This document shows, piece by piece, positions 1,753-23,558 of a DNA stretch of 64,000 bases. The notes beneath the pieces are model-generated. The model had not been told where the DNA came from, did not search any database, and worked only from the letters and a program-made list of their open reading frames with translations. The translations under genes were made by a program, and so were the position numbers. Numbering within the stretch: the first letter of the stretch is position 1; each line of letters starts with the position of its first letter. The DNA comes from Desulfobacteraceae bacterium (lineage in GTDB: Bacteria; Desulfobacterota; Desulfobacteria; Desulfobacterales; Desulfosalsimonadaceae). Location of the stretch: the NCBI GenBank assembly GCA_014237465.1, contig JABZFM010000001.1, positions 1 to 64,000 of the forward strand, in the 5' to 3' direction.

Positions 1753-1859
1753 GTAACTTCTCAATAAGTCCGGGCTATAAATGTGAGTTCACATATAACC
1801 CATGTAGCGGAAGGCTAAAGCCTTCCGCTACATCGCCCGGATTTATTGAGAGAATACGC
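1753..1859. repeat. Hairpin MITE-like element, copy 1, inserted at a gene end
   Basis: The two ends match as inverted repeats: one reads GTAACTTCTCAATAAGTCCG, and the other, reverse-complemented, reads GTATTCTCTCAATAAATCCG. Inside is a strong stem (TAGCGGAAGGC / GCCTTCCGCTA, 1805-1830). CGCCAG occurs on both sides (about 1747-1752 and 1859-1864), compatible with a target duplication. The undisturbed paralogue near 19150 has contiguous sequence here. The element supplies the stop codon of the type A cyclase gene. Confidence 0.75.
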
Positions 1860-4800
1860 CGCCAGTTCCTTTTCATATTTCTCAATCCAGCCGTCAGCGC
1901 CGCATTCTTTGAGAATCTCTATGGCTTTGTTCAGGTTTTCCTTGGCTTTCGGAATATCATCTTTTTGTTTAAAAAGATCAGCGTAAAGAGCGTAATCCTT
2001 TCCTAAACAAAACATCATGCCGTTTCTTTGGTCGGCTTCGATGGCTTGCCTGATCCATTTCTCTGCCTCTGTTAAATGCTCATCATCTATATTTAACAGA
2101 ATTTCTCCGATATATCTTTTCATCCAGCCGTCATAAGCATTAATCTTATTTTCAGAAACAAAGTTGTACATTGTTTTTAGATCAACATTTTTTTCATGAT
2201 TCATCACCATTGATCTTGCAACGGAAATTTTATTCAAATTCATATGCGATGGTAGCATTTTGCTTTGATTAAATAGTGAAATAGCGCCTAAATAATAGTT
2301 TTTTGATTTTTCATAATCGCCACGTTCATAGTATATATCCCCTAAAGTCCATTTTGTGTTAGCCCCAAATGAAATAAGGTTTATACGTTCGCAAAAGTTT
2401 AAGCCGTCAATGAGGTATTTCTCTGCATCGTTTAAAAGCCCCTTGTGGTAACAGGACTGACCATGACAGCTAAAAGTATAGGCCTTTGAAAGAATATCGC
2501 CACTGTCTTCTGCCAACTTTAGTGCTTCGCTGCTGGTTTTATATGCAAGATCAATCTTACCCTGTAAATTAAAAACAAAATAACCTTGAGCGCTTCTATT
2601 TAGTGCCATTCCCCATTTGCTTTTAGTGGTTTTAACGATATCCATCCAGTTTTGAAAATTTTCTGAGGCTTTATCAAATTCACAATTAAGCCCCATGGCA
2701 GGTCCCAGATGCGAAAGGGCTACAATCAATGAAAAATAATTACCAACTTCCGCTGAGTCTCTGATGGCTTTTTTTAATGTCTTGAATGCGTTTGGTACAT
2801 CTTCCTTAATCCAAAACAAATAAGATCCTTCAATCGTGTGTATCTGGCAGAGCCGCTTTTTATAATCGTATCTCAAGGCCAGGTCAACAACAGGTGCTAC
2901 GGCCTCCTTCGCTCTTGTATTATAATTTATTTGCAAAAAATAAAGACCTATTATCGTACGTGCATCGATTATTTTTTTCTGGACATCATCTGTCCGAGGA
3001 AGCCTCTCAAGGCATTCAATTCTTTTTTCCCCATAGGTAATGGCATCGTTAAATGAAGCTTTTTTAATTGCCTTTTTGCATATCAGCTTACAGTACTCTT
3101 CGCCTTTCTCAAAATTTTCTGCTTTTATGAAGTGATCGGATAACAACTCGTAGTGTTCGTCTATATTCTCTTTGTGTAATTCTTCAATGGTTCTTCCTAT
3201 TTTTTCGTGGAGTATTTTTTTTCTTTTGCCCAGTATCGTATCATAGACAACCTCTTGCGTCAGGGCGTGTTTAAAAATATAGGTGGATTGCGGATATATG
3301 CCCCTTTCATAGACAAGCTCCGTGTCTTTTAAAACCGAAAGGCGGGATAACAACTCCCTTTCAGGAAGCTCCGCCACCTTCTGAATCAACTCGTAGCTGA
3401 ACTCACGCCCTAAGACTGATCCGATCTGGAGCAGTTCCTTTGCGCCCTCAGACAGCGAGTCAACCCGGGACATGATCACATCCTGGATTGTTGAAGGGAT
3501 GGCGACATCTTTAAGATCTTTTACCAGACAATATTTCTTCTTCTGCTCTTCAATAATCCTTAAATCTTTTAGTGATTTTAAAAACTCTTCTATAAAAAAG
3601 GGCACACCCTCGGTTTTTTCAAGGACCAGCTCCTCGATTTCTATGTCGATCTCTGCTGTGCCCAAAAGGTGAGAAACCATGGCCAGGCTTTCCCGGTTGG
3701 AAAGCCGGTTTAAGTTGATCTGGCTGTGATATGATTTTCCTCCCCATGTGTGCACATACTCCGGCCTGTAAGTGAATATTAAAAATACCTGTGCCCCGGA
3801 AATGTTCTCAAGCAAGTTCTTAAAATATTCCTCGGAACTTCTGTCAATCCAGTGCAAATCTTCAACAGCGATAATCAAAGGCCTTATTTCGGAACCCTTT
3901 AAGGTAATTAAATGAACCGCAGACATGATGCGATCTTTTCTGGCCTCCGGACTCATGTCGATCTGATCGATACCGCTGTCTTTGACAGATAAAAGCTCAA
4001 GCAGGTAAGGAAGGATATTGGCTTCATCTATATCAATTGTTTTCAGCCACTTGGTGACTTTATTTTTTATTGTTGTGCAGTCATCGGTATCTAAGATATT
4101 AAAGTTTGATTTTAGAATATCGATGACCGGGTGATATGCTATTCCACGGCTATAGGAAAGGCACTTGCCTTCAAAAAAGCTCACATCTTCATTTGATACA
4201 CTCTTTCTAAATTCATACAATAGCCTTGATTTTCCAACACCTGCCTCGGCCATAATCGAAAATGCCTGTCCTCGGCCAGATTTGGACATCTTAAACCCAT
4301 CCAGCAGAATTTCAAGCTCCCTCTCTTTTCCGATAAAAGGAGTAAGGCCTCTTTCAGCACTCACATCAAATCTTGTACGTCTGGAACTGGTAGCGATTAC
4401 ACGATATATTTCAACTGGATCTTTTTTGCCTTTGATTGTTTTTTCGCCCAAAGCTTCAAAACGGAACAATCCTTCGGTGACCTTAAACGTATCCTCTGTT
4501 ACATAAGTTGATCCTGGCTCTGCCAGGCTCTCCATTCTTGATGCCAGATTTACCGTATCTCCCACAGCTTTAAATTCGACCCGAAGATCATTCCCAAGAG
4601 TTCCCACAACAACCGGGCCGGTATGAATGCCGATTCGCATTTTAAGTATTGGCAGGCTTGTTTTTTCCTGTTTTAGCTTATCGCTGAACTTTGACATTTC
4701 CAGATGAATGGCCATAGCAGATCGGATTGCACGCTGAGGGGCGTCTTCAAGTGCGATTGGGGCGCCAAACAGAGCCATTACTCCGTCACCGGTCATTTCA

Positions 4801-5222
4801 TTGACCGTACCCTCAAATTCATGGACCTTGTGGATTAATATTTCATAAACCTGGTCCATGATGCCATAGGCGTCCTCAGGGCCGAGGACCTCTGAAAGGG
4901 GGGTAAATCCGACCATGTCACAGAACATCACGGTGACCTGTTTGCGCTCGCCTTCGATTTTGCCCCTTTGGGCCAGGATTTTCTCAGTAAGTCCTTTGGG
5001 AAGATACCGCTGGATTTTCTCTAATTTATCATCAAAAGAGATTTCTTGAGGGAGTGGCTCGGAAGAGGGTATTGACAATTTGTGGCCGCATTCATCGCAA
5101 AACTTACTGCCGGGAGGATTTAATCTGCTGCATTCCGGACATGAAAGTTCCAATTTGCAACCACACTCGTTGCAGAATTTTGCCTCTTCACGATTATCAA
5201 TCTGGCACTTTGGGCATTTCAT
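1815..5222 (-). CDS. Cyclase/ATPase/TPR giant, type A (copy 1), C-terminus rewritten by a repeat
   Basis: The 1135-residue protein has two zinc ribbons (C3-C46), a class III cyclase domain at about 93-275 and an AAA_16/STAND-like ATPase from about 296. D102 (FCDMVGFT) and D146 (TGDG) are the metal aspartates, and N225/R229 lie in GDTVNLASR. Walker A is AEAGVGKS ending at S332, and Walker B is VEDLHW around D455. The long helical tail is TPR-like. No signal peptide or membrane segment is seen, so it is probably cytosolic. At the substrate-choosing positions it has E142 and K218 rather than the usual Lys/Asp or Lys/Thr of adenylate cyclases, so its product cannot be called. The last 13 or so residues (SLNKSGRCSGRL) come from the inserted hairpin element; the paralogue at 19148 ends EKEMAAM instead. 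It follows the micro-ORF cassette at 5602-6008. Confidence 0.92.
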   Translation of the reverse strand: MKCPKCQIDNREEAKFCNECGCKLELSCPECSRLNPPGSKFCDECGHKLSIPSSEPLPQEISFDDKLEKIQRYLPKGLTEKILAQRGKIEGERKQVTVMFCDMVGFTPLSEVLGPEDAYGIMDQVYEILIHKVHEFEGTVNEMTGDGVMALFGAPIALEDAPQRAIRSAMAIHLEMSKFSDKLKQEKTSLPILKMRIGIHTGPVVVGTLGNDLRVEFKAVGDTVNLASRMESLAEPGSTYVTEDTFKVTEGLFRFEALGEKTIKGKKDPVEIYRVIATSSRRTRFDVSAERGLTPFIGKERELEILLDGFKMSKSGRGQAFSIMAEAGVGKSRLLYEFRKSVSNEDVSFFEGKCLSYSRGIAYHPVIDILKSNFNILDTDDCTTIKNKVTKWLKTIDIDEANILPYLLELLSVKDSGIDQIDMSPEARKDRIMSAVHLITLKGSEIRPLIIAVEDLHWIDRSSEEYFKNLLENISGAQVFLIFTYRPEYVHTWGGKSYHSQINLNRLSNRESLAMVSHLLGTAEIDIEIEELVLEKTEGVPFFIEEFLKSLKDLRIIEEQKKKYCLVKDLKDVAIPSTIQDVIMSRVDSLSEGAKELLQIGSVLGREFSYELIQKVAELPERELLSRLSVLKDTELVYERGIYPQSTYIFKHALTQEVVYDTILGKRKKILHEKIGRTIEELHKENIDEHYELLSDHFIKAENFEKGEEYCKLICKKAIKKASFNDAITYGEKRIECLERLPRTDDVQKKIIDARTIIGLYFLQINYNTRAKEAVAPVVDLALRYDYKKRLCQIHTIEGSYLFWIKEDVPNAFKTLKKAIRDSAEVGNYFSLIVALSHLGPAMGLNCEFDKASENFQNWMDIVKTTKSKWGMALNRSAQGYFVFNLQGKIDLAYKTSSEALKLAEDSGDILSKAYTFSCHGQSCYHKGLLNDAEKYLIDGLNFCERINLISFGANTKWTLGDIYYERGDYEKSKNYYLGAISLFNQSKMLPSHMNLNKISVARSMVMNHEKNVDLKTMYNFVSENKINAYDGWMKRYIGEILLNIDDEHLTEAEKWIRQAIEADQRNGMMFCLGKDYALYADLFKQKDDIPKAKENLNKAIEILKECGADGWIEKYEKELAAYSLNKSGRCSGRL

Positions 5223-5532
5223 TTTTATTCACCAATCATCAAGATGCTTGAACAAAAAACCCCCAAAAAAAGAATTAACCCGGGCGGAACTACTGGTTGT
5301 ATTCGGTATGAATGTTTAGAAGGTAATAAGAAGAGGCGATGATTTTTTTTTGCCGTCGTTTGGGTAGATAGAGTATTCTAGAATTTAGTAATGGGTGTTG
5401 TCAAGAATTACTTTGGCTGATTTGAGAAAGGTTTTACGATCTGCCATATCATAGTATGAATTAATGGTGGTACAGGAGAATGTATTTGTTTTGTTGATTA
5501 TTTTGAAAAATTTATCAGCAATGGGAATTTCC

Positions 5533-5614
5533 CTGGATCGCATTGTACATGATAGCGATCTCAATTTTTTTTCAACTTTTTTTAGATTTGCTGATAATCA
5601 GCTATGCGATCCAG
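5533..5614 (-). promoter_or_regulatory. Conserved leader with mutually exclusive pairings, copy 1
   Basis: Two perfect 11-base arms, CTGGATCGCAT (5533-5543) and ATGCGATCCAG (5604-5614), can pair. A third segment GCGATC (5555-5560) can pair with the same downstream arm in the transcript. The first arm to be transcribed overlaps the stop codon of micro-ORF 4. The block recurs nearly unchanged at 22820-22901 before the other type A gene. This layout resembles a translation-sensitive leader, but that is inference. The 310 bp between it and the cyclase start hold no other gene that I can support. Confidence 0.4.
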
Positions 5615-5658
5615 AAAAATGAATAAATTGTGAAGTGGGTGGTTGGCATCGGGTTCAT
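5602..5658 (-). CDS. Micro-ORF 4 of the cassette, copy 1 (18 codons)
   Basis: The frame encodes MNPMPTTHFTIYSFFWIA. Its ATG overlaps the TGA of micro-ORF 3 (ATGA), which would allow translational coupling, and it has no separate strong ribosome binding site. The copy at 22889 has the same length. There the second half (TIYSFFWIA) is identical while codons 4-9 differ completely. It ends in WIA like micro-ORF 1. It is less certain than its three neighbours and might act only as a leader peptide over the inverted repeat that overlaps its stop. Confidence 0.4.
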   Translation of the reverse strand: MNPMPTTHFTIYSFFWIA

Positions 5659-5717
5659 ACAAACCATCCGAGAGTGAAACAATAAATAACGTTTGTGAGT
5701 ATTGTTAGAATGTCCAT
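5655..5717 (-). CDS. Micro-ORF 3 of the cassette, copy 1 (20 codons, hydrophobic)
   Basis: The frame encodes MDILTILTNVIYCFTLGWFV, a single hydrophobic stretch long enough to span or lie in a membrane. An AGGAGA ribosome binding site lies 7 bases before the ATG. The copy at 22942 differs by one synonymous base in the part compared. No known family is recognised. It lies between micro-ORFs 2 and 4, all reading towards the type A cyclase gene. Confidence 0.6.
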   Translation of the reverse strand: MDILTILTNVIYCFTLGWFV

Positions 5718-5816
5718 TTTATTTCTCCTTTTTTTATGATGTCATTTTGAAAATAAATGATTTGTTCTTTTCATATCGCTTCAGCGTTTCAGCATATCTT
5801 GTTTTCGGGTGATCGG

Positions 5817-5876
5817 TTAAGAGATGAAAAGAATGCCCATGTACAGATAATATCCGATGATCATTAATGTATCCAT
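5817..5876 (-). CDS. Micro-ORF 2 of the cassette, copy 1 (19 codons, hydrophobic)
   Basis: The frame encodes MDTLMIIGYYLYMGILFIS and is preceded by a GGGGGG ribosome binding site 7 bases from the ATG. In the second cassette (23105) the last five residues change to ALLIA, and the stop changes from TAA to TAG, but length and hydrophobicity are kept. It shares an opening M-(D/E)-(T/I)-L with micro-ORFs 1 and 3, suggesting the three arose by duplication. Function is unknown; a membrane micropeptide is the simplest reading. Confidence 0.62.
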   Translation of the reverse strand: MDTLMIIGYYLYMGILFIS

Positions 5877-5948
5877 TTTATTGCCCCCCTTTATAATTTG
5901 TTGTTATTGAAAATAATTGCGTCATCTCTTTGTTTTAGTGATGATCTT

Positions 5949-6008
5949 TTAAGCGATCCAGAGAATGGCATAAACAACGATGTGTCCGATTGTCAGTAAA
6001 GTTTCCAT
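5949..6008 (-). CDS. Micro-ORF 1 of the cassette, copy 1 (19 codons, hydrophobic)
   Basis: The frame encodes METLLTIGHIVVYAILWIA with a GGGGGAG ribosome binding site 5 bases before the ATG, the strongest of the set. The second copy (23259) differs only by Val to Ile. It is the first frame of the cassette after a candidate promoter at 6059-6074. No homologue is recognised. Alternatives include a type I toxin-like peptide or a small regulator of a membrane protein. Confidence 0.65.
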   Translation of the reverse strand: METLLTIGHIVVYAILWIA

Positions 6009-6058: not shown

Positions 6059-6074
6059 TCCAATAAGCATGCCA
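6059..6074 (-). promoter_or_regulatory. Candidate sigma-54 type promoter before the micro-ORF cassette, copy 1
   Basis: On the minus strand TGGCATGCTTATTGGA resembles the -24/-12 pattern TGGCAC-N5-TTGCA, with the -12 GC changed to GG. It sits about 50 bases before micro-ORF 1 and is identical in the second cassette (23368-23383). Conservation may reflect recent duplication, so this is only a candidate. Confidence 0.3.
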
Positions 6075-6271
6075 AACCGCACAGGAAACTTTTAATAGCT
6101 TGTTTTGTTTGGGGATAATTTTTTTTCTGGTGAAATTTAGGGGCTGTGGTTGGAATGATTAAGACGCATATAATGAATGCTATGCATGGATTTTTGCGGT
6201 AATGATAGCTGTAGAATTCAGGAATTTCATAATCGGATTTCTCTTCATGGGGGCTGTGACCACATTTGTCA

Positions 6272-6444: not shown

Positions 6445-7512
6445 TCAGCCATTATCAGTATAGCGTTGATGGATCGTTTTGAACGTCTCGATATTATCCA
6501 GCATGATCTTTACCAGCTCCGGATCAAACCGGCGACCGGAGCCTTGCCTTATGATTTGAAGCGTTTTATCAATATCGAATGCCTCCTTGTAGCATCGTCT
6601 GGACATCAATGCATCAAACACATCCGCTATGGAGATGATTCGGGATTCAAAAGGGATATTATCGCCTGATAAACCATCGGGATAGCCGGAACCGTCATAC
6701 CGCTCATGGTGGTGCCGAACCAGGTTGTACGCCATTACAAATGTCGGATGATTAACTTGTTCAAGCACCTTTTTCAGGGTCTGGGCGCCAATGGTTGTGT
6801 GAGTTTTCATTTTTTCAAACTCATCTTTTGCCAGTTCCCCCGGTTTCAGAAGAATACTGTCCGGTATGCCAACTTTGCCGATGTCATGCAGAGGGGAAAC
6901 ATTGTAAATATTTTCAATAAAATCATACGTTATTGACTGAGGGTATGTATTCCGGCTCTTTATTCGCTCGGATATAAACATACAGTATGATTGAACCCTC
7001 TTGAGATGCTCTCCGATTTCCGGATCACGGGACTCAGCCAGGTCCGCCAGCGAGAATATCATGGTATGATAGGCATTGATGATCTGTTGATTGGCCTTGC
7101 TTTCTGAGTGAATCAAGCGGTCATTAATGGTTTGAATCATATTCAGGCTGAGGCGATGGTTCTTCTCGACCAACGCCATAAAATCATGCTGATTGATTGT
7201 ATAACAAACCAAATCCGTATGAGCATGCACGGTCGCGGACCGATTGTTACCGGAGAGTAATGACATCTCACCAAAATATTCGCCGGTCTGAATCATGCCC
7301 AGGCTTCTCTCTCCACCGAAAAAATCCTTTACAACTCCGGCCCGGCCTTTGACCAATAAAAACATGGACTGGCCGGCATCCCCTTCTTTAAAGACGGTCT
7401 CTCCTTTTGTATAGGTTACCCGATGAAATCGCTCTGTGATGAGATTTAACTCATCTTCAGAAATTCCATCAAACAGCCTGTTTTTTTTAAGGTATTCGAT
7501 TAAATGATGCAT
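6445..7512 (-). CDS. Cyclic-nucleotide-binding HD-GYP phosphodiesterase
   Basis: Of 355 residues, about 10-125 form a cNMP-binding domain with a phosphate-binding cassette (GEYFGEMSLLSGNNRSA, E82 and R91). Residues about 145-345 form an HD-GYP domain with H169, H209-D210, HHH at 267-269 and the G276-Y277-P278 motif. HD-GYP domains typically hydrolyse c-di-GMP. The cNMP domain makes the enzyme a likely target of cAMP or cGMP made by the cyclases upstream. It starts 88 bp after the end of the cyclase gene at 7601-11185 and closes the operon-like run. It has no membrane segment or receiver domain. Both domains are clear; the signalling connection is inferred from domain logic and neighbours. Confidence 0.93.
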   Translation of the reverse strand: MHHLIEYLKKNRLFDGISEDELNLITERFHRVTYTKGETVFKEGDAGQSMFLLVKGRAGVVKDFFGGERSLGMIQTGEYFGEMSLLSGNNRSATVHAHTDLVCYTINQHDFMALVEKNHRLSLNMIQTINDRLIHSESKANQQIINAYHTMIFSLADLAESRDPEIGEHLKRVQSYCMFISERIKSRNTYPQSITYDFIENIYNVSPLHDIGKVGIPDSILLKPGELAKDEFEKMKTHTTIGAQTLKKVLEQVNHPTFVMAYNLVRHHHERYDGSGYPDGLSGDNIPFESRIISIADVFDALMSRRCYKEAFDIDKTLQIIRQGSGRRFDPELVKIMLDNIETFKTIHQRYTDNG

Positions 7513-19147: not shown

Positions 19148-22100
19148 TTACATTGCCGCCATTTCCTTTTCATATTTTTCAACCCACCCGTCAGCGCCGC
19201 ATTTTTTGAAAATATTGATTGCTTTGATCAGGTTTTCTTGGGCTTTTGGAATATTGTTTTTTCGTTTGATAAGATTAGCGTAAAGGGCATAATCCCTGGC
19301 TAACTCAAACATCATGCCGTTTTTTTTGTCAGCATCGATGGCTTTTTGGATCCACTCTTCGGCTTTAGAGATATGTTGGATGCCAAGATTCAACCAAATA
19401 TCCCCGAAAAGCCTTTTCGTCCATCCATCGAGACATTTTAAGTTATTTCGATCCATATAATTATTCATCAACTTTAAATCAAAATTTTTGAACTTATTGA
19501 TCATACGGATTCTTGCAATATTGATTTCAAATAAATTGTGCCAAGAGTGGAATCCTCCAGTTTTTTTACCAAACAATATTGCTTGATTATAATGATCCCG
19601 GGCCTTTTTATAGTCTCCTCGATCAAAAAAGATTTCGCCCAAAAACAAATTCGCCCAACCTCCCCAGGAATACCACATGGTTTTTCCACATAAATCCACA
19701 GCTTCTAAAAGTACATTCTCGGCTTTTTTAAATAGTCCTTTATAAAAACAGCACATGCCAAAGGTTGAAAGTGCCATTCCCTTGAAATGTATATCACCGC
19801 TTTCTCGTGCCAGATGTAGTGATTCTTCACTCGTTTTAAATGCAAGGTCAATTTTGCCTTGAAAAGCGTAGCCAATGACACTCATAGTCCCTTTTGCAAC
19901 AACAATACCATTCGCTTCATTTATTGTCTTCGACAAATCAAGCGACTTAATTAAAAATGAAATGCCTTTTTCAAAATCACAATTAAAACATAAAGCACCC
20001 CCCAAAAAATAGCATGCAAGCCAGTAGGAAAAGAAATCACCAGTTTCTTCAGAAATTTTTATTGCCTTCTGTAAGTCTTCAAATCCTTTCGGATAATCTT
20101 CTTCAACATAAATGCTAAATGATCCGGTTGAGACATATATAATCGGAAGTTTTTTTTGATAATTTAAATTAACAGCCAGATCTACGATTGGAGCGACAGC
20201 TTCTTTTGCTGCAACATGGAGATTAATCACTACGCAATAAGCAGCCAGACTTGTCCTGGCATCAATGATTTTTTTCTGAACAGCATCTGTGTTTGAAAAT
20301 TTTTCAAGGCAGAAAATCGTTTTTTGGGCATATGATATGGCATCACTGAATGCAGATCTTTTTCTCGCCATCCTGCCTGCCAGCTTTGAATATTCAGCCC
20401 CTTTTTCATAATTTTCAGAATTAATAAAATGCCCGGATAGAACCCCGTAATGTTGATTAATATTTTCTTTAAACAGTTCCTCAATCGCGGTGCCAATTTT
20501 TGCATGAAGTTTTTTCTTTCTTTTGGTCAATATCGAGTCGAAAATTACTTCCTGGGTAAGTGCATGTTTGAATATATAGGTTGATTCGGGATATATTCCT
20601 TTTTCATACAGCAGCTCAGAATCCTTTAAGGCTGACAAATGAGAGAGAAGTTCCTGCCCGGATAAGCCTGTCACCAGCTTTATCAATTCATAGCTGAACT
20701 CTCTTTCGATAACCGACCCGGTTTGAAGCAGCTCTTTTGCACCTTCAGGCAGGGAATCAACACGAGCCATTATGACATCCTGAATCGTTGAAGGGATGGT
20801 TATATCCTGAAAATCTTTTGCCAGATGATATGTTTTCTTTTTTTCTTCAATGATCTTCAAATCCTTAAGCGATTTTATAAATTCCTCAATGAAAAATGGC
20901 ACCCCTTCAGTTTTTTCAAGGATCATGTTCCCGATATCACTGACAATATCATCTGTCCCCATAAGGTGTGTCACCACGGCAAGGCTCTCCTGGTTGGAAA
21001 GGCGGTTCAGCGTGATCTGGCTGTGATACGATCTGCCTCCCCAAATGGGCACATACTCCGTCCGGTAAGTAAAGATTAATAATATACATGCAACTGAGAT
21101 ACTATTGAGCAGATTCTTCAGACATTCCTCAGAGCTTTTATCAATCCAGTGAAGATCTTCAATCGCAATAACCAGCGGTTTTAATTCAGAACCTTTAATG
21201 GCGATTCGTTTCACGGATTCCATGATCTGCTCTTTTTTTGCCTGGGGGCTCATTGGTATTTTATCTATACCGCTATCTTTCACAGATAAAAGCTCCAGAA
21301 GATACGGCAGGGTGGAGGCTTCATCAATGTCCAATATGCTCAGACCGTTTATGATCTTATCCCTGATCTCTGAATCATTGTCGTTTTCCTGAATATTAAA
21401 ATTTGATTTCAATATATCTATGACCGGATGATATGCAGCACCCTTGCTATATGAGAGACATCTCCCCTCCAAAAAGGTAATATCTTCATTGATCACAGCT
21501 TTTCTGAATTCATATAAAAATCTGGATTTGCCGACACCCGCCTCAGACACAATGGAAAATGCCCGGCCACTGCCGGCCTTTGAGCGCTCAAACCCATCCA
21601 GCAGCAGCTCAAGTTCCCGCGCTCTGGCGATAAAAGGCGTCAGCCCCCGTTCGGCACTGACATCAAACCGGGTTCGCCGGCTGCTGGGTGCGATTACACG
21701 ATATATCCTAACCGGATCTTTTTTGCCCTTGACCGCTCTTTCACCCAGGGCTTCGAAACGGAAAAACCCCTCGGTGAGCTTAAATGTGTCTTCGGTTATA
21801 TATGTGGCGCCGGGTTCTGCCAGCCCTTCCATTCTGGAGGCCAGATTTACCGTATCGCCCACAGCTTTAAACTCAACCCGAAGATCATTGCCCAGGGTGC
21901 CGACAACAACAGGGCCGGTATGAATGCCGATACGCATCTTAAGAATTGGCAGACCTGCCTTCTCCTGTTTTAGCTTATCGCTGAATTTAGACATTTCTCT
22001 ATGTATCGCCATTGCAACCCTGATCGCACGTTGAGGAGCATCTTCAAGCGCAATGGGCGCACCAAATAACGCCATCACACCGTCACCGGTCATTTCATTG

Positions 22101-22516
22101 ACCGTGCCTTCAAAATCATGAACCTTGTGAATTAATATTTCATAGACCTGGTCCATGATTGAGTATGCTTCCTCGGGGCCAAGGCTCTCGACCATAGGAG
22201 TAAAACCTTCCAAATCGCAGAACATGACCGTGACCTGTTTGCGCTCACCTTCAATTTTGTCTTTTTGGGCCAGGATTTTTTCAGCAAGTCCCTTTGGAAG
22301 ATATCGCTGGATCTTGTCTATTTTTTCATCAAAGGAGAGTTCTTTGGGGGGAGGCTCGGAGGGGGAAGTCAAGTTGTAGCCGCATTCAATACAGAATCTA
22401 CTTGCCGGAGAGTTTGCCTTTCCGCATTCCGGACATGCGATTTCCAGTTTATTGCCGCATGCATTGCAAAATTTTGCCCCTTCAGGGGGAACAGATTTGC
22501 ATTTCGGACATTTCAT
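19148..22516 (-). CDS. Cyclase/ATPase/TPR giant, type A (copy 2)
   Basis: The protein has about 1122 residues, starting MKCPKCKS by analogy with its paralogues; a TTG three codons upstream (22525) is possible but no clear ribosome binding site favours it. Domain order is two zinc ribbons, class III cyclase (FCDLEGFT, NEMTGDG, FKAVGDTVNLASRM), ATPase (SEAGVGKS, IEDLHWIDKSSEE) and TPR-like tail ending EKEMAAM. It is closest to the gene at 1815-5222 and keeps the original C-terminus that the other has lost. As there, Glu and Lys occupy the two base-recognition positions. It heads the run of leftward genes down to 6445 and is itself preceded by the micro-ORF cassette at 22889-23318. Confidence 0.92.
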   Translation of the reverse strand: MKCPKCKSVPPEGAKFCNACGNKLEIACPECGKANSPASRFCIECGYNLTSPSEPPPKELSFDEKIDKIQRYLPKGLAEKILAQKDKIEGERKQVTVMFCDLEGFTPMVESLGPEEAYSIMDQVYEILIHKVHDFEGTVNEMTGDGVMALFGAPIALEDAPQRAIRVAMAIHREMSKFSDKLKQEKAGLPILKMRIGIHTGPVVVGTLGNDLRVEFKAVGDTVNLASRMEGLAEPGATYITEDTFKLTEGFFRFEALGERAVKGKKDPVRIYRVIAPSSRRTRFDVSAERGLTPFIARARELELLLDGFERSKAGSGRAFSIVSEAGVGKSRFLYEFRKAVINEDITFLEGRCLSYSKGAAYHPVIDILKSNFNIQENDNDSEIRDKIINGLSILDIDEASTLPYLLELLSVKDSGIDKIPMSPQAKKEQIMESVKRIAIKGSELKPLVIAIEDLHWIDKSSEECLKNLLNSISVACILLIFTYRTEYVPIWGGRSYHSQITLNRLSNQESLAVVTHLMGTDDIVSDIGNMILEKTEGVPFFIEEFIKSLKDLKIIEEKKKTYHLAKDFQDITIPSTIQDVIMARVDSLPEGAKELLQTGSVIEREFSYELIKLVTGLSGQELLSHLSALKDSELLYEKGIYPESTYIFKHALTQEVIFDSILTKRKKKLHAKIGTAIEELFKENINQHYGVLSGHFINSENYEKGAEYSKLAGRMARKRSAFSDAISYAQKTIFCLEKFSNTDAVQKKIIDARTSLAAYCVVINLHVAAKEAVAPIVDLAVNLNYQKKLPIIYVSTGSFSIYVEEDYPKGFEDLQKAIKISEETGDFFSYWLACYFLGGALCFNCDFEKGISFLIKSLDLSKTINEANGIVVAKGTMSVIGYAFQGKIDLAFKTSEESLHLARESGDIHFKGMALSTFGMCCFYKGLFKKAENVLLEAVDLCGKTMWYSWGGWANLFLGEIFFDRGDYKKARDHYNQAILFGKKTGGFHSWHNLFEINIARIRMINKFKNFDLKLMNNYMDRNNLKCLDGWTKRLFGDIWLNLGIQHISKAEEWIQKAIDADKKNGMMFELARDYALYANLIKRKNNIPKAQENLIKAINIFKKCGADGWVEKYEKEMAAM

Positions 22517-22819
22517 TTTTTTCAACGGAGTGAAAATAAAATGTGAAAAGGTTAATACCCAGGCAGAATCACTGGTTGAATAAAAAATGCAAATTATAGA
22601 AATTATAATGAAGTGGAAATGAATTTATGTTGCCACAGCTTGGGTAGGTATAAAGTAGTTTATGGTGTGGGGGTTCAATTTGTCAAGAATTTCTTTTTGT
22701 TAGTGTTTTAAGAGGCTTCTCTCTTCTACTAATCCGTGGTATGGAATAAAGTAGCAGGCCGGGAAATAGTAAATATTTTTAAAGTAATTTTAAATACCTT
22801 TTCATAGATGAGGACTTCC

Positions 22820-22901
22820 CTGGATCGCATTGTACATGATAGCGATCTCAAATTTTTTTCAGCTTTTTTTAGATTTGCTGATAATCAGCTATGCGATCCA
22901 G
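22820..22901 (-). promoter_or_regulatory. Conserved leader with mutually exclusive pairings, copy 2
   Basis: CTGGATCGCAT (22820-22830) and ATGCGATCCAG (22891-22901) form the same 11-base pairing as in copy 1. The competing GCGATC segment is at 22842-22847. The arm overlaps the stop of micro-ORF 4. The sequence between here and the cyclase start (22517-22819) shows only patchy similarity to copy 1 and no further gene. Confidence 0.4.
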
Positions 22902-22945
22902 AAAAATGAATAAATTGTGCGTTGATTAAATATCGTTGGGTTCAT
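22889..22945 (-). CDS. Micro-ORF 4 of the cassette, copy 2 (18 codons)
   Basis: The frame encodes MNPTIFNQRTIYSFFWIA, overlapping the stop of micro-ORF 3 by ATGA. Same length and same last nine residues as the frame at 5602, with an unrelated middle. The kept length despite the changed middle is weak support for translation. Confidence 0.4.
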   Translation of the reverse strand: MNPTIFNQRTIYSFFWIA

Positions 22946-23004
22946 ACAAACCATCCGAGAGTGAAACAATAAATAACGTTTGTGAGTATTGTTAAAATGT
23001 CCAT
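22942..23004 (-). CDS. Micro-ORF 3 of the cassette, copy 2 (20 codons, hydrophobic)
   Basis: It encodes the same peptide as the frame at 5655 (MDILTILTNVIYCFTLGWFV), with a CTA to TTA synonymous change and the same AGGAGA ribosome binding site. No known family is recognised. Confidence 0.6.
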   Translation of the reverse strand: MDILTILTNVIYCFTLGWFV

Positions 23005-23104
23005 TTTATTTCTCCTTTTTTTATGATGTTTTTTGAAAATAAATGATTTGTTCTTTTCATATCGCTTCAGTGTTTCAGTATATCTTGTTTTGAGGATAGA
23101 TCAG

Positions 23105-23164
23105 CTAAGCGATCAAAAGTGCACCCATGTACAGATAATATCCGATGATCATTAATGTATCCAT
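23105..23164 (-). CDS. Micro-ORF 2 of the cassette, copy 2 (19 codons, hydrophobic)
   Basis: It encodes MDTLMIIGYYLYMGALLIA. Compared with copy 1 the C-terminal residues ILFIS became ALLIA, all hydrophobic or small, and the stop changed to TAG. A GGGGGG ribosome binding site precedes it at normal distance. Confidence 0.62.
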   Translation of the reverse strand: MDTLMIIGYYLYMGALLIA

Positions 23165-23258
23165 TTTAGTGCCCCCCTTTTATAACTTGTTGTTATTGAA
23201 AATAATTGCGTCATCTCTTTGTTTAATGGATCTTTTCATTGACCTGGCGAATGATCCG

Positions 23259-23318
23259 TTAAGCGATCCAGAGAATGGCATAAATAACGATGTGTCCGAT
23301 TGTCAGTAAAGTTTCCAT
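23259..23318 (-). CDS. Micro-ORF 1 of the cassette, copy 2 (19 codons, hydrophobic)
   Basis: It encodes METLLTIGHIVIYAILWIA, one Val to Ile change from copy 1, behind the same GGGGGAG site. The spacer between this frame and micro-ORF 2 carries an insertion of about 20 bp relative to copy 1, whereas the frames themselves have no indels. Confidence 0.65.
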   Translation of the reverse strand: METLLTIGHIVIYAILWIA

Positions 23319-23367: not shown

Positions 23368-23383
23368 TCCAATAAGCATGCCA
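23368..23383 (-). promoter_or_regulatory. Candidate sigma-54 type promoter before the cassette, copy 2
   Basis: Same sequence as at 6059-6074 (TGGCATGCTTATTGGA on the minus strand), with an imperfect -12 element. The conserved block continues about 130 bp further upstream in both copies. Confidence 0.3.
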
Positions 23384-23558
23384 AACTGCATCGGAAACTT
23401 TTAATAGCTTGTTTTGTTTGGGGATAATTTTTTTTCTGGTGAAATTTAGGGGCTGTGGTTGGAATGATCGAGACGCATATAATGAATGCTGTGCATGGAT
23501 TTTTGCGGTAATGCTATCTATGGAAAGGGGGGTATCCGCTTCATTGTCCTTGGGTATA

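What the first reader, a model, noticed from the sequence alone, without database searches (positions are those of the whole stretch)
5602..6008. Cassette of four micro-ORFs in front of a cyclase, present twice
Seen: four tiny frames of 18-20 codons in a row, at 5602-6008 and again at 22889-23318, all reading towards a type A cyclase gene. Three have strong ribosome binding sites and encode a hydrophobic stretch opening M-(D/E)-(T/I)-L; the fourth overlaps the third by ATGA. Between copies, indels fall only in spacers, and the changes within frames 1-3 are synonymous or hydrophobic for hydrophobic. Inference: membrane micropeptides that signal to, or sense for, the cyclase/ATPase protein, or type I toxin-like peptides. 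I recognise no described family.
Basis: partly seen in the sequence, partly recalled or inferred. Interest (0 to 1): 0.9.

Follow-up and report, generated by a model that had tools for sequence, protein, structure and literature searches.

The report
Enhancer-controlled cassette of membrane micropeptides
A short DNA unit, found in six full copies in this Desulfobacterales genome and in only three known relatives, appears to switch on one to three different 19-20-residue membrane peptides from one special promoter, next to genes for cyclic-nucleotide signalling and a phospholipase; the peptides belong to no family I could find.

Summary
Both copies carry three minus-strand frames of 19, 19 and 20 codons with strong ribosome sites, and they are real genes: profile searches recover them at E 1e-8 to 1e-13 in three other genomes of the same family, codon changes preserve the peptide, and random sequence does not produce them. 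Frame 4 is not a gene: its conserved end is one arm of an inverted repeat that closes the cassette.

New here: all 13 cassettes that contain frame 1 start with a sigma54-like promoter (TTGGCAYRNNNATTGG) and an enhancer-like motif about 120 bp upstream. In two genomes a sigma54-activator gene stands divergently beside a cassette. In all four cassette-bearing genomes one cassette adjoins a rare phospholipase gene with cyclic-nucleotide-binding domains. Cassettes also sit at arrays of cyclase-ATPase-TPR genes. The cassette is its own unit: 90% alike before cyclases only 64% alike, sometimes without a co-directional downstream gene, and the cyclase has its own promoter-like site. So 'signals to the cyclase' is only weakly supported. 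Best reading: a stress-switched set of single-pass membrane micropeptides acting on the membrane or its lipids, tied to cNMP signalling. Function is inferred, not shown.

The parts
6172..6195 (-). Enhancer-like element (UAS), copy A: AAAAATCCATGCATAGCATTCATT, 120 bp upstream of the -24 element
   Evidence: motif found blind at -118 to -121 in 12 of 13 distinct loci and at -106 in one; score 213 against 138-146 in shuffles
6060..6075 (-). sigma54-like -24/-12 promoter, copy A: TTGGCATGCTTATTGG
   Evidence: TTGGCAYRNNNATTGG in front of ORF1 in all 13 cassettes
5949..6008 (-). ORF1, copy A: METLLTIGHIVVYAILWIA
   Evidence: Shine-Dalgarno site; profile A1 recovers it in 4 genomes; substitution test
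5817..5876 (-). ORF2, copy A: MDTLMIIGYYLYMGILFIS
   Evidence: Shine-Dalgarno site; homologues in G003, G024, G015
5655..5717 (-). ORF3, copy A: MDILTILTNVIYCFTLGWFV
   Evidence: Shine-Dalgarno site; profile A2 recovers it in 3 genomes and in a remnant; substitution test
5602..5658 (-). 'Frame 4', copy A: rejected as a gene; its 3' part is an arm of the closing inverted repeat
5533..5614 (-). Closing inverted repeat, copy A (exact 11-bp core CTGGATCGCAT: arms 5604-5614 and 5533-5543; about 17 bp as folded RNA)
5375..5404 (-). sigma70-like promoter (TTGACA-N18-TAGAAT) between cassette and cyclase, copy A
   Evidence: 11 of 12 consensus bases
1815..5222 (-). Neighbouring cyclase-AAA_16-TPR gene (cycA)
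   Evidence: Pfam
23481..23504 (-). Enhancer-like element, copy B
23369..23384 (-). sigma54-like promoter, copy B
23259..23318 (-). ORF1, copy B: METLLTIGHIVIYAILWIA
23105..23164 (-). ORF2, copy B: MDTLMIIGYYLYMGALLIA
22942..23004 (-). ORF3, copy B: MDILTILTNVIYCFTLGWFV
22820..22901 (-). Closing inverted repeat, copy B (includes the end of 'frame 4')
22657..22686 (-). sigma70-like promoter before the cyclase, copy B
19148..22525 (-). Neighbouring cyclase-AAA_16-TPR gene (cycB)
   Evidence: Pfam

Best explanation
It is a self-contained operon, copied around the genome, for one to three kinds of single-pass membrane micropeptide. Proposed working: (1) a sigma54 activator (bEBP; encoded at G000 contig 39, L010:6122-7627 minus strand, with a Walker A motif and GAFTGA) binds the motif about 120 bp upstream and opens the -24/-12 promoter when its unidentified N-terminal domain senses a signal, probably envelope or lipid stress; (2) the transcript gives ORF1, ORF2 and ORF3 from their own strong ribosome sites; (3) the 19-20-residue peptides insert as transmembrane helices, each with a conserved polar or aromatic residue in mid-membrane (His9 in ORF1, Tyr-Tyr in ORF2, Asn/Asp/Lys9 in ORF3) and in ORF1 and ORF3 a Trp near the C-terminus, and so probably assemble with each other; (4) they alter the membrane or a membrane-bound partner in the same response as a cNMP-binding, NTE-like patatin phospholipase and the class III cyclases at the same loci. 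Steps 1-2 are supported by sequence conservation; insertion in step 3 follows from composition; assembly and step 4 are inference.
For: ORF1-3 are under protein-level constraint across three genera and are recovered by profiles with a wide gap to noise (E 5e-8 or better against 0.05 or worse). Promoter and enhancer occur in the ORF1 cassettes at nearly fixed spacing. The sigma70 alternative is disfavoured because the would-be -10 hexamer is not conserved between genera. The bEBP gene is divergent from the cassette in G000 C39b and in G015:C244 (85% identical). Homologous bEBPs in G005, G009, G012 and G037 have the same promoter type beside them, ahead of VIT/VWA genes or a lysophospholipid-type MFS/acyltransferase gene. 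rpoN is present in all four genomes. The NTE-type patatin is rare (5 of 40 relatives over cut-off) but present in all four cassette genomes, directly beside a cassette each time (in G003 only its N-terminal 345 residues are on the contig). In G003:C56 an AMP-binding (acyl-CoA synthetase-like) gene follows ORF3 by about 0.1 kb.
Against: The -12 element reads TTGG, not the usual TTGC, at every site. No expression data. The neighbouring proteins have no recognised membrane domain, so a physical target is not identified. ORF1 of G015:C244 has a nonsense codon. G003 lacks a close bEBP homologue in its assembly (best 55%). Cassettes are found in only 4 of 60 relatives, so whatever they do is dispensable to most of the family.
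Confidence: 0.5

Rival explanations
1. Type I toxin-like peptides: an induced burst of short hydrophobic peptides depolarises the membrane and stops growth, as IbsC (19 aa) or ShoB do, held in check by an antisense RNA.
For: Length and hydrophobicity match IbsC, which is 19 aa and lacks the positive C-terminus common to other type I toxins (PMC8309996). Several copies per genome. Inducible-looking promoter.
Against: No antisense gene recognised: opposite-strand promoter-like sites in the cassettes have only 9 of 12 matches, and total counts are within about 2 sd of shuffles. Three different conserved peptide types with constant order and conserved polar residues are more than lysis requires. 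Repeated pairing with a phospholipase gene.
Confidence: 0.2
2. Micropeptide subunits or sensors of the cyclase/ATPase/TPR proteins.
For: ORF3 stands directly upstream of a cyclase at five loci, including G015:C291 and a remnant where only ORF3 survives (C50:189683).
Against: Cassettes at C39b, C69, G024:C238, G015:C244 and G003:C189 have no adjoining cyclase. The same cassette precedes cyclases only 36% identical (C17 against A). The cyclases carry zinc ribbons and no Pfam membrane domain. A sigma70-like promoter lies between cassette and cyclase.
Confidence: 0.15
3. Part of a cNMP-triggered defence (Pycsar-like) in which phospholipase and peptides damage the membrane on phage infection.
For: The cyclase domain matches PycC models (best 7e-22) and the patatin's cNMP domains match Pycsar effector models. 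A DUF4143 ATPase (PADLOC candidate PDC-S01) lies beside C39a.
Against: These matches cover only the generic cyclase and cNMP-binding domains. The patatin's lipase domain matches CBASS phospholipase models weakly (about 1e-6 to 1e-8). No compact PycC-effector operon. The same promoter type drives VIT/VWA and lipid genes elsewhere.
Confidence: 0.1
4. Leader peptides or attenuator for the downstream gene.
For: Short frames with strong ribosome sites upstream of a gene; a stem near the end.
Against: At C39a, C39b, the G024:C243 pair and G015:C244 the next gene is convergent, so there is nothing to attenuate. Constraint is on the peptide sequence. Several peptides per transcript.
Confidence: 0.05

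Closest known systems
Type I toxins IbsC/ShoB/LdrD of E. coli
   Same: short (19-35 aa) hydrophobic single helices, several copies per genome
   Different: no antisense RNA found; three peptide types in one sigma54-like operon; toxicity untested
PSM-alpha operon of Staphylococcus (own knowledge)
   Same: several ~20-residue leaderless peptides in tandem, each with its own ribosome site
   Different: PSMs are amphipathic, lysine-containing and secreted; these are uncharged apart from one or two acidic residues and would stay in the membrane
Multi-peptide leaderless bacteriocins (aureocin A70, garvicin KS)
   Same: tandem related short peptides without leader
   Different: those are longer and cationic with immunity/export genes (own knowledge); no exporter was found beside the cassettes
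sigma54/bEBP-controlled operons of Desulfovibrio vulgaris (PMC4641369)
   Same: one-component bEBP, promoter with a tGGcacg-like -24 element, upstream inverted repeat
   Different: D. vulgaris -12 is tTGCt, here TTGG; the passages read do not report such peptide genes

Membership tests
sigma54 (RpoN)-dependent operon | -24 element TGGCAC/T with the -12 element starting 10 bp after GG | tested here: met
   GG-N10-GG register in all 13 cassettes and 4 bEBP-linked sites
sigma54 (RpoN)-dependent operon | -12 element ending in GC | tested here: not met
   TTGG at all sites; D. vulgaris consensus is tTGCt. Hence called 'sigma54-like', not filed as a member
sigma54 (RpoN)-dependent operon | upstream enhancer, a bEBP with GAFTGA, and rpoN in the genome | tested here: met
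Type I toxin-antitoxin (Ibs/Sib, Ldr/Rdl, Hok/Sok) | short hydrophobic peptide with one transmembrane helix | tested here: met
   GRAVY 1.2-1.7, 19-23 aa; the helix itself is inferred
Type I toxin-antitoxin (Ibs/Sib, Ldr/Rdl, Hok/Sok) | antisense RNA antitoxin | tested here: inconclusive
   no Rfam match; opposite-strand promoter-like sites are weak
Type I toxin-antitoxin (Ibs/Sib, Ldr/Rdl, Hok/Sok) | toxicity on overexpression | not testable with these tools
   bench test needed
Phenol-soluble modulins | amphipathic, lysine-containing secreted peptide | tested here: not met
   no Lys/Arg in window ORF1-3
Leaderless multi-peptide bacteriocins | cationic peptides with immunity/export genes | tested here: not met
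   net charge -1 to -2; neighbours are cyclases, patatin, bEBP
Pycsar defence | two-gene unit of pyrimidine cyclase and cNMP-binding effector | tested here: inconclusive
   domains match but the arrangement differs; nucleotide specificity not testable

The most novel reading that the evidence does not exclude
Three co-expressed, mutually different transmembrane micropeptides form a hetero-oligomeric membrane device (sensor, pore or lipid-handling helper) that is switched on by a dedicated sigma54 activator and coupled to a cyclic-nucleotide-gated, NTE-like phospholipase and cyclase arrays: a membrane-stress module of a kind not described before.
Probability: 0.25. Interest if true: 0.85.

Novelty: new variant of a known kind. 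Interest (0 to 1): 0.62.

Why it matters
Genes of 19-20 codons are missed by annotation. Here their reality is supported by cross-genus conservation, and one defined control region suggests that all copies are switched on together. If the pairing with a cNMP-binding phospholipase is functional, it would offer a tractable case of how very small membrane peptides take part in lipid or stress responses, and a handle on the poorly understood cyclase-STAND-TPR gene arrays of Desulfobacterales.

Tried and rejected
Frame 4 as a gene: rejected. Leader/attenuator: rejected as a general explanation because several cassettes have a convergent next gene. sigma70 reading of the cassette promoter (TTGGCA-N16-AATAAT, 10 of 12): disfavoured because the -10 is not kept between genera. 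Wider distribution: an exact-pattern scan of 84,980 species gave 55 stretches; reading the translations, only those of three Desulfobacterales MAGs are real, the rest chance. IMG/VR gave two chance hits; plasmids and phages none. No PHROG or convincing PDB relative. Literature searches found no description. No structure prediction was run: the peptides are below the 30-residue minimum.

Full report
1. Observation. All frames are on the minus strand. Copy A has ORF1 6008-5949, ORF2 5876-5817 and ORF3 5717-5655; copy B has 23318-23259, 23164-23105 and 23004-22942. All six have strong Shine-Dalgarno sites. A scan of the full window on both strands for ORFs of 17-24 codons with such a site and GRAVY >=1.2 finds nine, six of them these; in 5,000 Markov shuffles of the cassette none had three.

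2. Are they genes? BLAST in the genome found further cassettes on contigs 17, 39 (two) and 69, and in three relatives: G003 (same genus), G015 and G024 (same family). Profiles of ORF1 and ORF3 find these and one remnant at E 5e-8 or better; the next-best matches among 60 genomes are at 0.05 or worse, apart from the interrupted ORF1 of G015:C244 at 0.4. Placing the observed base changes at random shows that the peptides are kept better than expected: in ORF3 14 of 15 pairs and in ORF1 most pairs have p below 0.05, in ORF2 the divergent pairs mostly do, and in frame 4 none does. Pairs share ancestry, so the p-values are not independent. One G024 row was a duplicate of its neighbour; one search used the correct sequence.

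3. Frame 4. Its conserved part TTTTTCTGGATCGCAT pairs with ATGCGATCCAGGGAAA about 60 nt downstream. The folds of copies A, B and C17 have z about -3.4 to -4, and G003:C189, with the changed stem TTTTCCGGATCGC/GCGATCCGGAAAA, has -5.5; the C69 fold is not significant (-1.0) though it has the same 11-bp stem. The CTGG/CCAG to CCGG/CCGG change keeps pairing. Whether this acts as RNA or DNA is unknown. No classical terminator was found.

4. Control region. All 13 ORF1 cassettes carry TTGGCAYRNNNATTGG, about 50-57 nt before the ATG. An unsupervised motif search in 13 distinct upstream regions returned one motif, ATGTATACAT or CCATGCAT followed by a CATTCAT-like half, at -118 to -121 (-106 once), score 213 against 138-146 in shuffles. 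Some of the regions are homologous, which helps the score, but four of the 13 come from loci with unrelated downstream genes (L049, L050, L051, L055). This layout and a divergent bEBP indicate sigma54. The caveat is TTGG instead of TTGC at -12 at every site.

5. Composition of cassettes. ORF1 is always first. Orders: 1-2-3 (A, B, G003:C189, G015:C244), 1-3 (C17, C39a, G003:C56, G015:C291), 1-1' (C39b), 1 alone (C69), and 1-2 followed by a different, mostly cationic third frame (G024 cassettes). ORF1 of G015:C244 has an in-frame TGA (GGA to TGA). At C50:189683 only ORF3 remains before a cyclase, with an inserted transposase-like gene where ORF1 and the promoter should be (that gene was identified by eye only).

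6. Neighbours. Cyclase-AAA_16-TPR genes adjoin A, B, C17, G024:C243 and G015:C291 and lie one gene away from C39a; G003:C56 has one about 4 kb away. G000 has 28 cyclase matches, so chance adjacency is not negligible there, but G003, G015 and G024 have only 4-5 each. The patatin (two cNMP-binding domains, NTE P-loop-like domain, lipase with GTSMG and DGG motifs) adjoins a cassette in all four genomes. PF24179 is over cut-off in 5 of 40 relatives; adding the truncated G003 copy gives 6, and four of four cassette genomes have it. A simple hypergeometric estimate, computed by hand, is 1.6e-4, or 0.004 without G003. Relatedness is not corrected for. G009 has the gene at a contig end, so its flank cannot be read.

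7. Cassette and cyclase evolve separately. A and B are 90% identical over 650 bp of mostly non-coding DNA, while their cyclases are 64% identical; C17's cassette is 87-89% identical to A, its cyclase 36%. So the cassette has been copied or homogenised independently. A sigma70-like promoter stands between cassette and cyclase.

8. Mechanism and novelty. See best explanation. Shown: conservation, coding, common control region, neighbours. Inferred: bEBP binding, membrane insertion, assembly, role in lipid or membrane stress. No described family was found in the libraries and papers searched, which does not prove absence.

Noticed in passing
L213:3684 (G000:C50:189683): Remnant cassette: ORF3-type peptide MEILTTLTDLIIYFSAGWIFWPV before a cyclase, with a transposase-like gene inserted where ORF1 and the promoter would be.
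   Followed up: partly
L021/L124 (G015:C244:1145-1201): ORF1 carries an in-frame TGA while ORF2, ORF3, promoter and enhancer are intact; real nonsense change or MAG error.
   Followed up: partly
L050, L051, L055; L049: bEBP homologues with the same enhancer and promoter type stand divergently from VIT/VWA genes, or in L049 from a short frame and an MFS/acyltransferase gene, instead of micropeptides.
   Followed up: partly
L010:3773-5113 (-): DUF4143/AAA_14 ATPase matching PADLOC candidate PDC-S01 (5.5e-170) between the cyclase array and cassette C39a.
   Followed up: no
window 6445-7512 (-): cNMP-binding domain fused to an HD domain (HD_5), directly upstream of cassette A among cyclase genes: a second possible cNMP reader.
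   Followed up: no
L164, L165 (G024 cassettes): Third frames are cationic, e.g. MLTTIKSIVQKNEKRSQSLFAIGYLKFVGVIWLQ, unlike ORF1-3.
   Followed up: no
L216 / L154 (G000:C34:43632-43648 -): Promoter-like TTGGCATGCTTCTTGGA with a GTACAG..CTGTAC palindrome upstream but no recognised micropeptide: possible further regulon member.
   Followed up: no
L053, L063 and others: More distant bEBP paralogues (about 57% identical) mostly lack this promoter and enhancer; L053 and L063 share a divergent long gene that looks related.
   Followed up: no
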